Source of the DNA: Opitutus sp. ER46
GTDB taxonomy: Bacteria > Verrucomicrobiota > Verrucomicrobiia > Opitutales > Opitutaceae
DNA: 64,000 nt
Direction of reading: 5' to 3'
Assembly (NCBI RefSeq): GCF_003054705.1
Contig: NZ_QAYX01000025.1
Span: 806,001 to 870,000, forward strand
Shown: piece after piece, positions 9,279 through 62,531 of the stretch
Position numbering within the stretch: position 1 is the stretch's first letter
Layout of the letters: each line of letters begins with the position of its first letter
Made by a program: the position numbers and the translations under genes
The notes under the pieces: generated by a model
Databases searched by the model: none
What the model saw: the letters and a program-made list of their open reading frames with translations, nothing else
What the model was told of the DNA's origin: nothing

Positions 9279-9308
9279 TCGGCGCCATCGCTCGTGCGAC
9301 GCGGCGGC

Positions 9309-9331
9309 AGTGTCACGTAATACGTGACACT
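9309..9331. repeat. Palindrome family copy 2 (TGTCACGTAATACGTGACA)
   Basis: A perfect palindrome with 11-nt arms (AGTGTCACGTA and TACGTGACACT) around a single A at 9320. It lies 57 nt from copy 1, upstream of the membrane-protein gene and downstream of the ECF operon. A one-base centre cannot form a tight hairpin without opening base pairs, so a symmetric protein-binding site is as likely as a transcription terminator. Confidence 0.8.
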
Positions 9332-9462
9332 CACGCGCGCGGCTGTTGTCGCCGGATCGTTGATACGGCATCTCGGCGCCCCACGGTCTTGGCGCACGGG
9401 ACAAGTGCCGCGGGGTAACGGGCCCGTTGGTGCGCACTGCCCGAGACTGATCTTCTGGCCAC

Positions 9463-12781: not shown

Positions 12782-12810
12782 GCCGCCACGCGGGAACAGG
12801 ACCTGCCCAA

Positions 12811-12829
12811 TGTCACGTATTACGTGACA
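12811..12829. repeat. Palindrome family copy 3 (TGTCACGTATTACGTGACA)
   Basis: Nine-bp arms around a central T. It follows the frameshifted hydrolase gene by 29 nt and matches the cores of the copies at 9252 and 9309. All three copies lie within 3.6 kb and flank the ECF-hydrolase segment. Confidence 0.8.
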
Positions 12830-12913
12830 CTCGCGGACGCCGGAACTGTCGCCACAGTTTTAATACATTGCCCTGAGGCAGGCGGCGGTTTTCGCGTCCG
12901 CGAATACGGCGGG

Positions 12914-12951: not shown

Positions 12952-14223
<1,272 letters not shown>

Positions 14224-14248: not shown

Positions 14249-14340
14249 GGCGGCGCTGGCGCGCCGGTTGTAGGTGGAAAGTTACAGGTTCGAAGGTTCC
14301 AGGTGGGAAGGTTGGGGGCGGAATCGTTCTCGTTCTCGAG
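14249..14340. repeat. Composite intergenic element: GC hairpin, heptamer array, TTCTCG array
   Basis: A GGCGGCG..GCGCCGG hairpin motif (from 14249) leads into a degenerate array with repeated AGGTTCG/AGGTTCC units (to about 14315), then TTCTCG repeats (14324-14340). The first 50 or so bases align well with 62211-62262, and the same order of parts is found there, so this is a dispersed element. Confidence 0.75.
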
Positions 14341-14377: not shown

Positions 14378-14498
14378 TCTTTCTCTTACTCTTAATCTTT
14401 CTCTTACTCTCATTCCTCGCCGCGGACGCCGCCGCTGGGCGGCGACGGCGGATGCGGATCGGGGGAGTAAGAGAAAGAGGAAGAGTAAGAGAAAGAGG
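14378..14498. repeat. Inverted pair of hexamer arrays (TCTTAC/TCTTTC and GAGTAA/GAGAAA)
   Basis: The pyrimidine arm 14378-14419 is built from CTCTTAC and CTTTCT units; the purine arm 14465-14498 from GAGTAA, GAGAAA and GAGGAA units. The arms are largely complementary over about 33 bp, separated by a 45-nt GC-rich centre that can itself fold. The two purine half-arms are nearly identical to each other. Confidence 0.8.
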
Positions 14499-31242: not shown

Positions 31243-31311
31243 GAGAGTGAAAGTAAAAGTGAGAGTGAAAGTGAGAGTGAGGGTGAACGTGAGAGGGAGC
31301 GCGAGTGAGAG
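31243..31311. repeat. GAGTGA/AAGTGA hexamer array upstream of tyrS
   Basis: About eleven degenerate hexamers of the forms GAGTGA, AAGTGA, AAGTAA, GGGTGA, GAACGT and GAGAGG. The array is purine-rich on the plus strand and starts 52 nt from the tyrS start codon, so it lies in the tyrS leader or promoter. Confidence 0.75.
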
Positions 31312-35769: not shown

Positions 35770-35809
35770 CGGCGCGAACGGCGGCCGGCCTCTGATTTCT
35801 AAAATCCGG

Positions 35810-35872
35810 CTTCTGGCTTCAGGCCTCTGACCTCTGAGTTCAGGCTTCTGGCTTCCGATCTCCGGCCGCTGG
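35810..35872. repeat. Nine-unit heptamer array (CTTCTGG type)
   Basis: Nine consecutive 7-nt units: CTTCTGG, CTTCAGG, CCTCTGA, CCTCTGA, GTTCAGG, CTTCTGG, CTTCCGA, TCTCCGG, CCGCTGG. The register is unbroken over 63 nt although units differ. It lies in the 225-nt gap between the STAS and SpoIIE genes. A further TCTGA-like unit precedes it near 35791. Confidence 0.8.
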
Positions 35873-47217: not shown

Positions 47218-48411
<1,194 letters not shown>

Positions 48412-53671: not shown

Positions 53672-54649
53672 GTGCGATCACGTGTATCCACAGTCTTGAT
53701 CGCGGGTCTGGTGGTGCTCGCGCCAACCGCCTGCAAACGCGCAGCCGCGCCCCCGCCGCCGGTCCAAGCCCAGACCAGCCGGGGCCTGGCCGAGTGGCGC
53801 CGGGTCAACTCCGGCCGGCACACGGCGGATGAGTGGCGGGAGTTCGACGCGATGCTGCAGGAGATCCGGCTGGGCGTGATGGTCGATCGGGAGGCGACCG
53901 GTTCGGAGGCCATCGACGCGGTGGTGCGGCAGAAGATCAATGGCCGCTCGTTCGCGGAAGTACTGGCAATTGGGTATGGCGCCAAACGCCACCGGCTCGT
54001 GCCGCTGCGGGACGAGCTGAAGAAGACGATCGATGGCAACGCGTGGCTCGTGACGAAGGAGGGCGACGCGGCCGGGGCCGCTCATCTGGCCAGCGTGCGG
54101 GCGCGGCAGGAGCGTCAACTACAGGAATTTGACGCGCAGATTGCCGAGACCGAGCGGCAGCTGCTCCGGCTGGAGCCGCAGCTACCGAAGACGCTGCAGT
54201 ACGCGCGGCCACCGGAGCGCGACCTGGGGACGGCAGCGACGCCAGTATCGCGCGAACGCGCCCGCGAGGAGATTGGCGGAATGATCGAGCGTCGCCGCGC
54301 CGTCGCCCAGCTGCAATACGGGGCGTGGCCGGTGCGGCTCGACCCCGACGGCGCAAGCCTGACTGGCGAAGACCGCGCCGAGTTTGAACGCCGCCGGGTG
54401 GAGGCCGCGACCACGGGACATGTGGTCATTGCCGTGAGCCTGAAGAATCAGTGGTGGATCTACGACGAGCCGAAGCAACTGCCCGCCTTTTCACCGGCGG
54501 TGCTGGCGAACCTCACCGAGCAGGATCGCCGCGAGATCGAAAACGAATGCCTCCTGCTGCAGGCGGAGGTGTGGGCCCGGATGAAGGCCAAGAAAAGTGA
54601 GAGTGAAAGTGAGAGTGAGAGTGGGACGACGGATACACGGCCGGAGTGA
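53672..54649 (+). CDS. Lipoprotein-like exported protein with repeat-derived C-terminus
   Basis: A 325-aa protein with a GTG start, a hydrophobic signal (VSTVLIAGLVVLAPTAC) and a probable lipobox Cys at about residue 21. Residues 35-260 are helical, with a likely coiled coil around LEFDAQIAETERQLLRLEP. No family is recognised. The last 18 residues read [19 protein letters not shown], because the gene runs directly into a GAGTGA hexamer array; the original stop may lie upstream of that expansion. No close partner gene is visible. Confidence 0.75.
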   Translation: MRSRVSTVLIAGLVVLAPTACKRAAAPPPPVQAQTSRGLAEWRRVNSGRHTADEWREFDAMLQEIRLGVMVDREATGSEAIDAVVRQKINGRSFAEVLAIGYGAKRHRLVPLRDELKKTIDGNAWLVTKEGDAAGAAHLASVRARQERQLQEFDAQIAETERQLLRLEPQLPKTLQYARPPERDLGTAATPVSRERAREEIGGMIERRRAVAQLQYGAWPVRLDPDGASLTGEDRAEFERRRVEAATTGHVVIAVSLKNQWWIYDEPKQLPAFSPAVLANLTEQDRREIENECLLLQAEVWARMKAKKSESESESESGTTDTRPE

Positions 54650-54744
54650 GGGGGCAGCCTTGAGTCGTTCTCGTTCTCTTTCTCGTTCTCGTACTCTCAA
54701 ACCCCGGCCGGGCGCCGCTGACGCCCGGCGCGAGAAAGAGAGTA
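54597..54744. repeat. Triple hexamer array with central GC hairpin
   Basis: A GAGTGA/AAGTGA purine arm (54597-54627) inside the lipoprotein gene, a TTCTCG/TTCTCT pyrimidine arm (54664-54698), a GCCGGGCG..CGCCCGGC perfect 8-bp hairpin, and a short GAGAAAGAGAGTAG arm (54732-54744). The pyrimidine arm can pair with either purine arm. Confidence 0.8.
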
Positions 54745-55588: not shown

Positions 55589-55618
55589 GAGAACGAGAAC
55601 GAGAACGAGAACGAGAAC
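55589..55618. repeat. Five perfect tandem GAGAAC hexamers
   Basis: (GAGAAC)5 with no mismatch, 49 nt beyond the stop of the ParB-like gene. It is the cleanest example of the hexamer family in the window, and its perfect register suggests recent expansion by slippage. Confidence 0.9.
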
Positions 55619-62094: not shown

Positions 62095-62164
62095 CTTGGA
62101 GGAAGCGGGGGATTCGATTCGCCGGCCCCGGGGGGAGACAATCCCATTCTCAGCCGGGGAGTAA

Positions 62165-62262
62165 GGCGGCGCTGGTGCGCCCGTTAAGGTTGGAGAGTTG
62201 CAGGTGGGTAGGCGGCGTTGGAGCGCCGGTTGCACGTTGGAGAGTTGCAGGTTCGCAGGTGG
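62165..62262. repeat. Two copies of the GC-hairpin plus AGGTTG heptamer element
   Basis: Copy A (62165-62209) and copy B (62211-62262) both start GGCGGCG.TGG.GCGCC. The 17-nt segment GTTGGAGAGTTGCAGGT is perfectly repeated at 62189-62205 and 62236-62252. Copy B aligns with 14249-14305 at about 80% identity over about 50 nt by eye. Confidence 0.8.
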
Positions 62263-62267
62263 ACGAA

Positions 62268-62343
62268 TCTTTCTCGTTCTCGTTCTCCCGTCTGTCTGTC
62301 CGCCTGTCGTCGTTCTCTTTCTCATCCGCTTTCTCGTTCTCCC
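62268..62343. repeat. TTCTCG / TTCTCT pyrimidine hexamer region
   Basis: Two blocks of TTCTCG- and TTTCTC-type units (62268-62288 and 62320-62343) separated by a CTGTCTGTCCGCCTGTC stretch. It follows the heptamer element in the same order as at 14249-14340. Confidence 0.75.
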
Positions 62344-62432
62344 CTCGCTATCCGCGATCACGCCTGCGTCAGACCCGCGCGCCGCCGTGCCAATCGCCGC
62401 TAAACGGGCGACCGTGGGAAAACTACTAGTGG

Positions 62433-62454
62433 ACCGCCGACGATTTTTGGCGGT
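62433..62454. promoter_or_regulatory. Inverted repeat ACCGCC-N10-GGCGGT upstream of the FecI-type gene
   Basis: Perfect 6-nt arms 78 nt before the GTG start. The spacer ends in a T-run (GACGATTTTT), so it could be an operator or a leader hairpin. Evidence is positional only. Confidence 0.3.
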
Positions 62455-62531
62455 TATGTGGCTCGACTCATCGAAGCCGGACGGCAGGCTCCGCCAAGGT
62501 CACCCCTTTCGTTCCGGCTTTTCCCCCTTTC

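What the first reader, a model, noticed from the sequence alone, without database searches (positions are those of the whole stretch)
62165..62343. Tandem copies of the composite intergenic element upstream of the LPS fusion gene
Two copies share a perfect 17-nt repeat (62189-62205 and 62236-62252), both with a GGCGGCG..GCGCC start, followed by TTCTCG hexamers exactly as at 14249-14340. Conserved order of three unlike modules at distant loci is unlikely by chance and implies a mobile or copy-number-expanding element without coding capacity.
Basis: partly seen in the sequence, partly recalled or inferred. Interest (0 to 1): 0.7.

Follow-up and report, generated by a model that had tools for sequence, protein, structure and literature searches.

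The report
Repeat words pointing into gene spacers
The repeated stretch is not one mobile element but a stack of short, loosely repeated DNA words of a kind scattered between genes in many bacteria, and such words mostly point away from the nearest gene whichever way that gene is read, a rule reported so far for one word and not explained.

Summary
In detail: the 17-nt repeat, the two GC palindromes and the TTCTCG words lie where stated, and the order recurs. It is not a bordered mobile element but a stack of separate, degenerate short-word tandem arrays (6-8-nt units) of the STRR/LSSR kind. Several word families are scattered through this genome's spacers and combined in varying sets; GTTGCAGG and GTGAGA tend to lie outside TTCTCG/CTCTTA.

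Following them up gave a rule. Arrays sharing a word keep one polarity when read from the nearest spacer edge inward: 99 of 116 in this genome, 41 of 48 in a congener, 64 of 81 in an acidobacterium, and 85 of 87 for arrays centred within 15% of an edge. The frame is the spacer edge, not the gene strand. The finding's own arrays are too short for that test; their words read inward in 39 of 55 (GTTGCAGG) and 31 of 42 (TTCTCG) looser matches. Inverted arms are not copies of each other.

One published case exists (GGGAATC in Xanthomonas, Rehm 2015). I infer directional growth into the spacer, with selection removing arrays that run into genes. The enzyme is unknown; Ku and a telomerase-like RT were tested and not supported.

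The parts
62095..62531 (.). Divergent spacer between the acyltransferase/heptosyltransferase-like fusion gene (minus) and an ECF sigma factor (plus)
   Evidence: gene calls, families; matches in relatives begin at query residue 2-21 in nearly all listed rows
62165..62181 (+). GC palindrome, copy 1
62188..62206 (+). GTTGCAGG-type word array, copy 1, with the 17-nt repeat
62211..62227 (+). GC palindrome, copy 2
62228..62262 (+). GTTGCAGG-type word array, copy 2
   Evidence: a match of the genome-wide pattern (C25:868228)
62271..62287 (+). TTCTCG hexamer array
62290..62309 (+). GTCTGTCTGT run between the hexamer arrays
62313..62341 (+). second, degenerate TTCTC hexamer array; lies just past mid-spacer
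14249..14267 (+). GC palindrome of the second locus (malate synthase / isocitrate lyase spacer)
14268..14313 (+). GTTGCAGG-type array of the second locus, degenerate
14327..14337 (+). TTCTCGTTCTC of the second locus
14378..14410 (+). CTCTTA array, left arm of a hairpin; lies past mid-spacer and votes against the rule in the test
14465..14497 (-). CTCTTA array, right arm of the hairpin
31246..31286 (+). GTGAGA array reading inward from the left edge
48161..48192 (+). GTGAGA array reading inward
48213..48238 (+). TTCTCG array
48277..48303 (+). CTCTTA array, left arm; past mid-spacer and votes against the rule
48376..48397 (-). CTCTTA array, right arm, inward
54665..54696 (+). TTCTCG array, inward
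55589..55618 (-). TTCTCG array, inward from the right edge
35787..35855 (-). TCAGANG/CCGGANG-type heptamers close to a left edge and reading outward: a counterexample to the rule, below the threshold of the scored test

Best explanation
The finding is a stack of independent short-word tandem arrays (STRR/LSSR kind) in one spacer, not a discrete mobile element. SHOWN: several degenerate 6-8-nt word families are dispersed in this genome's spacers; arrays that share a word mostly have the same strand when read from the nearest spacer edge inward, at 5' and 3' gene ends alike, and more strictly the closer to the edge, in two congeneric genomes and one acidobacterium; inverted arms are not mirror copies. 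INFERRED mechanism: each word grows in one direction only (3'-ward on its inward strand), by copying from other arrays or from an unknown template at breaks or stalled ends in spacers. Arrays that grow toward a nearby gene are purged by selection, so the survivors start beside one gene and point into the spacer; repeated rounds leave some words outside and others inside. I put the identification at about 0.85 and the growth mechanism at about 0.3; the number below is for the statement as a whole.
For: Word families and dispersal. Single-array spacers of 80 nt or more obey the rule: GTGAGA 19/23, GGGANTGA 11/12, TCAGANG-type 6/6, TTCTCG/CTCTTA 12/16. Word-blind test in the inward frame: 99/116, 41/48, 64/81, with 0 of 1000 random flips reaching any of them; coding-strand frame 72/110, 27/42, 42/78. 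3'-5' pairs of arrays agree about as often as like pairs. Dose: 85/87 within 15% of an edge, 74/84 at 15-30%, 45/74 in the middle. TCAGANG in loci of many phyla reads inward in 40 of 59 scored sites, p 0.009. Arms not mirrored: 8 and 5 pairs, observed match no higher than shuffled. Layering. Independent published case: Rehm 2015.
Against: The finding's own arrays fall below the threshold of the word-blind test; only the looser class counts cover their words (39/55 and 31/42). The window holds one near-edge counterexample, 35787-35855. In G000 the coding-strand frame is also above chance (72/110, 7 of 1000 flips reach it). In G058 most word-sharing pairs inside one spacer lying on opposite sides run in the same direction, 21 against 5 inverted. 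An age gradient along arrays expected from growth at the inner tip was not found; in G019 the inner half was the more divergent, 29 to 15. The word-blind 7-mer scan gave nothing above z 3.5 in G042 and G008. Gene edges come from a home-made caller. No enzyme is identified.
Confidence: 0.5

Rival explanations
1. A palindromic miniature mobile element (MITE- or REPIN-like) is inserted in spacers; the words at its two ends give the inward polarity, and decay of one arm leaves single arrays.
For: Inverted word-sharing pairs on opposite sides of a spacer: 16 against 2 in G000 and 4 against 0 in G019; several spacers fold over their whole length.
Against: No common borders in 21 printed GTTGCAGG arrays, by eye; arms not mirrored; free combination of words; single-array spacers obey the rule; in G058 inverted pairs are the minority (5 against 21).
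Confidence: 0.15
2. The arrays are selected bidirectional terminators or other RNA hairpins at gene ends.
For: Arrays lie close to 3' ends (median 28.5 nt in G000 against 79 nt at 5' ends) and array-bearing spacers are convergent in 22 of 70 against 80 of all 563. The 14-kb spacer folds far better than shuffles (z -7.1).
Against: Polarity is the same at 5' ends (5'-5' pairs 101/138, 14/17, 108/154) and the coding strand predicts it poorly. The finding's own stretch folds no better than shuffles (z -0.37; 73 of 200 shuffles fold at least as well).
Confidence: 0.15
3. Ku-dependent end joining adds the words at breaks.
For: Ku is present in 3 of 27 genomes of the genus (G000, G019, G002), the three with most matches to the TCAGANG/CCGGANG pattern (197, 188, 11; next 10 and 9). 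By counting, such a coincidence has odds of 1 in 2925, but the comparison was made after the counts were seen.
Against: Ku in only 5 of 43 TCAGANG-bearing genomes; of the four with most matches among the 12 counted (157, 137, 92, 54) only the last has Ku. In 132 genomes of the order only G000 has both, of 11 with the word and 7 with Ku.
Confidence: 0.05
4. Ordinary replication slippage of chance seeds, with no directional process.
For: Tandem units, variable copy number, and a published view that heptamers suit polymerase slippage (Mrazek 2007 as summarised in PMC4679880).
Against: The same words recur at many unrelated loci of one genome and are rare in congeners, and slippage has no reason to follow the spacer edge.
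Confidence: 0.15

Closest known systems
GGGAATC heptamer repeats of Xanthomonas (Rehm et al. 2015, PMC4692102; passages and section 10 seen)
   Same: Degenerate heptamer arrays in spacers, 70 and 75 convergent pairs, and repeats lying nearer the ORF on their 5' side (28 against 160 nt) on either strand relative to the genes: the same edge rule for one word.
   Different: One word and one genus (Nostoc is said to have few pairs). Here several words of 6-8 nt, three genomes, layered words, and polarity measured against the coding-strand frame.
STRR of cyanobacteria and LSSR (Mazel 1990 recalled; Mrazek 2007 as summarised in PMC4679880, introduction seen)
   Same: Tandem 5-11-nt units in spacers, heptamers prominent, patchy across species.
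   Different: In the window's genome hexamers are the commonest period. The edge polarity is not mentioned in the text seen.
TAACTGA repeats of Beggiatoaceae (MacGregor 2015, PMC4679880; abstract and introduction seen)
   Same: Dispersed intergenic heptamer arrays, patchily shared by distant phyla.
   Different: One word, mostly just upstream of start codons; here both gene ends and several words.
DRT10 (Tang et al. 2025 preprint, PMC12632851; abstract and passages seen)
   Same: Strand-specific, telomerase-like synthesis of short tandem repeats is an existing bacterial activity.
   Different: It makes 9-nt repeat cDNA in defence. The only two RVT_1 hits of this genome pass the cut-off of group II intron maturases.

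Membership tests
STRR / LSSR (tandem repeats of 5-11 nt) | tandem units of 5-11 nt | tested here: met
   TRF and period scans: periods 6, 7, 8 gave 20, 8 and 5 segments in 400 kb, 0 in one Markov control
STRR / LSSR (tandem repeats of 5-11 nt) | mostly intergenic and at many loci of a genome | tested here: met
   in spacers (13% of 1.2 Mb): GTGAGA 35/39, GAGNAA 46/47, GAGAAC 42/60, GGGANTGA 12/14, TCAGANG-type 34/42
Xanthomonas-type edge-oriented repeats | nearer to the ORF on the 5' side of the repeat, on either gene strand | tested here: met
   for scored arrays; the finding's own arrays were not scored
MITE / REP-type mobile element | defined ends shared by copies | tested here: not met
   flanks of 21 arrays compared by eye
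MITE / REP-type mobile element | target-site duplication | not testable with these tools
   no relative close enough to show an empty site (best relative 69% protein identity)
MITE / REP-type mobile element | transposase acting in trans (for example a Y1 enzyme) | not tested
   no search was made for it
Telomerase-like RT product (DRT10) | a DRT10-type RT in the genome | tested here: not met
   two RVT_1 hits at E 0.01, both over the cut-off of the group II maturase model; no DRT10 model of its own was searched
Terminator | orientation follows the gene's sense strand | tested here: not met

The most novel reading that the evidence does not exclude
Bacteria of many phyla have a strand-specific activity, templated like telomerase or by sister arrays, that adds short words at DNA ends or stalled forks in spacers and grows away from the gene, so that spacers carry layered structures like telomere fusions.
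Probability: 0.15. Interest if true: 0.9.

Novelty: new variant of a known kind. Interest (0 to 1): 0.6.

Why it matters
Short degenerate tandem repeats in bacterial spacers have long been described, and in the papers seen here no mechanism is agreed. A rule that ties the strand of the repeat to the nearer spacer edge, whatever the gene's direction, is hard to square with plain slippage or with terminators and gives a sharp, countable prediction for any annotated genome.

Tried and rejected
Rfam over the window: no hit. Isocitrate lyase in relatives, to compare the 14-kb spacer: no match at E 1e-100 in the 37 other genomes. The acyltransferase fusion matched in 32 of 37 other genomes at E 1e-60, but the best is 69% identical and spacers could not be aligned; in the print-out loci were in contig orientation, so for minus-strand matches the side shown was downstream.

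The reversed-sequence control is no valid null for TTCTCG, CTCTTA and GTGAGA (reversed, they resemble their own word), and the GTTGCAGG pattern of that call is loose (57 of 325 hits in spacers). A strict GTTGCAGG run pattern found only 3 arrays in 1.2 Mb. Mirror-copy arms, an age gradient, Ku and a telomerase-like RT are treated above.

Rows dropped: one search scored 59 of 122 TCAGANG sites (39 inside ORFs, 24 without flanking ORFs within 1500 nt). One search printed 21 of 30 fetched GTTGCAGG loci. One search scored 245 of 264 arrays; 3, 9 and 7 had no word-mate or a tied vote. One search took 45 handles (43 genomes) chosen by me from those behind the 118 TCAGANG loci. In one search the printed spacer ends are wrong by an offset slip; the starts and the votes are not affected.

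Full report
What is there. The stretch 62165-62343 lies in the divergent spacer between a fusion gene (acyltransferase and heptosyltransferase-like parts, below the curated cut-offs; minus strand) and an ECF sigma factor. It holds two copies of a 46-47-nt composite, a GC palindrome followed by a GTTGCAGG-type word array with a perfect 17-nt repeat, and then TTCTCG hexamers. The repeat is longer than in 200 shuffles of the spacer (17 against at most 14). The same order stands at 14249-14337 between malate synthase and isocitrate lyase, followed by a CTCTTA hairpin. The minus-strand frame of the fusion gene is open through the arrays to 62361, but matches in relatives begin at query residue 2-21 in nearly all listed rows, so I take the arrays as non-coding.

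It is not alone. A search of the own genome with the 186-nt query lists 60 places. The printed neighbourhoods show several degenerate word families: TTCTCG, CTCTT(A/C/T), GTGA(G/A)A, GTTGCAGG with 7- and 8-nt units, GGGANTGA, (T/C)C(A/G)GANG and CATTCT(G/C). Exact TTCTCGTTCTCGTTCTC occurs 137 times here, not at all in 24 of 26 congeners, once each in the other two, and 13 times in G042, a genome of another genus of the family. G042's contig of 5,957,605 bases agrees with my recollection of Opitutus terrae PB90-1; no call names it. The GTTGCAGG pattern has 50 matches, the reversed control none. Other genomes sampled have other words: G008 AAAGTTG, CTCTCAA and NAACYCN-like heptamers; G019 TCAGANG, GGATTTC and GTTCTGG.

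No element borders. By eye, the flanks of 21 printed GTTGCAGG arrays share no common edge, although a GC-rich palindrome often precedes them. Words combine in varying sets: TTCTCG and CTCTTA share 21 spacers against 1.6 expected, GTTGCAGG and GGGANTGA 1 against 0.9, and TCAGANG-type arrays share none with the other classes. Order from the edge inward: GTTGCAGG before TTCTCG 4:0 and before CTCTTA 4:0; GTGAGA before CTCTTA 7:1 and before TTCTCG 3:0; GGGANTGA before TTCTCG 6:2 but 5:6 with CTCTTA; TTCTCG against CTCTTA 12:11.

The polarity rule. I called genes with a home-made codon-usage caller on 1.2 Mb of the own genome (835 genes, coding 86-88%). Each word class had a preferred strand relative to the side of the spacer. 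Inward readings were 39 of 55 for the loose GTTGCAGG class and 31 of 42 for TTCTCG. In spacers of 80 nt or more with a single array of a class the rule held in 19/23 (GTGAGA), 11/12 (GGGANTGA), 6/6 (TCAGANG-type) and 12/16 (TTCTCG/CTCTTA). A scan of 7-mers without chosen words put the same words at the top, 9 of 1709 pairs having z above 3.5; a 6-mer scan in G042 and G008, with less sequence, had none.

A word-blind test. Arrays of period 6-8 in spacers were read from the nearest edge inward and compared by shared 7-mers with arrays of other spacers. The majority of word-mates predicted an array's polarity in 99 of 116 (G000), 41 of 48 (congener G019) and 64 of 81 (G058, reached through a record titled Acidobacteria bacterium isolate LA_ACB_2); none of 1000 random flips reached this. 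Read on the coding strand of the nearest gene the figures were 72/110 (7 of 1000 flips reach it), 27/42 and 42/78; on the contig strand 51/96, 12/34 and 49/80. 3'-5' pairs agreed in 432/605, 42/59 and 327/467, like pairs in 68-82%. Pooled, arrays centred within 15% of an edge obeyed in 85 of 87, at 15-30% in 74 of 84, in the middle in 45 of 74. The stretches of G019 and G058 were chosen at or beside TCAGANG sites without regard to strand. In the window 8 arrays are scored: 6 obey, and the 2 that do not are left arms of hairpins lying past mid-spacer. The finding's own arrays are below the detection threshold, and a heptamer array at 35787-35855 close to an edge reads outward.

How far it reaches. 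In these loci, with crude ORF edges, TCAGANG reads inward in 40 of 59 scored sites (p 0.009) and in 30 of 40 clearly nearer one edge (p 0.002). Degenerate period-7 segments run at 336/Mb there against 2-16/Mb for periods 5, 6 and 8-10 and none for 11; the loci were chosen by a heptamer, so this is biased. In 132 genomes of the order 11 have TCAGANGTCAGANGTCAG and none the reversed control.

Mechanism. Arms of inverted pairs are not mirror copies (8 and 5 pairs), which speaks against fold-back copying or a fixed palindrome, though fast turnover of units could erase a mirror. In G058 same-spacer arrays mostly run in one direction (21 against 5 inverted), so the rule there does not rest on inverted pairs. 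A terminator does not fit polarity at 5' ends, and the finding's own stretch folds no better than shuffles while the 14-kb spacer does. I infer directional growth of each word away from the gene that it abuts, with selection removing arrays that grow into genes. The source of the letters is open. Ku coincides with the three congeners with most TCAGANG-type matches, but is missing in 38 of 43 TCAGANG-bearing genomes and shares only G000 with the word in the order sample. The two reverse transcriptases found are group II maturases. An age gradient expected from tip growth was not seen, and in G019 leaned the other way.

What is known. Rehm et al. 2015 (PMC4692102; passages, section 10) report for GGGAATC in Xanthomonas both convergent pairs and a shorter distance to the ORF on the 5' side (28 against 160 nt) on either strand. 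That is the same rule for one word. I saw the convergent pairs after my first class counts and the distance statement after the word-blind test. MacGregor 2015 (introduction) summarises Mrazek 2007: heptamers are the commonest class in most genomes. Cyanobacterial STRRs, the heptamers of the tRNA-Leu intron and Elhai 2008 are recalled; the last is not held. I found no statement of a general edge rule in searches, which cover open-licence papers only, and of the papers listed there I opened only the two named.

Noticed in passing
window 9308-9366 and 12808-12866: Two 59-nt copies (73% alike) built on a palindrome like GTGTCACGTATTACGTGACAC; AATACGTGAC occurs 8 times in 400 kb. It may be an operator or another dispersed palindrome.
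   Followed up: no
G000 C24:178862-179237 and C20:210353-210667; L019: A palindrome of the type GATAACACGCCAGATTTGGCGTGTTATC lies in the interior of several spacers.
   Followed up: no
L306, L313, L302 (C20:319281, C15:43158, C10:16254): GTTGCAGG arrays embedded in longer repeats spaced about 315 bases on C20, with CGCGAAAGGCGCGAA-type words.
   Followed up: no
window 54591-54649: A GTGAGA array runs into the 3' end of a gene (53711-54649) and codes for a Ser-Glu run at its C-terminus.
   Followed up: no
window 12952-14223: No isocitrate lyase match at E 1e-100 in 37 other genomes of the relatives sample, so the glyoxylate pair beside the second locus may be a recent gain.
   Followed up: no
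G000 C23:173591-174085: Ku in 3 of 27 congeners, the three with most TCAGANG-type matches; not borne out in wider samples.
   Followed up: partly
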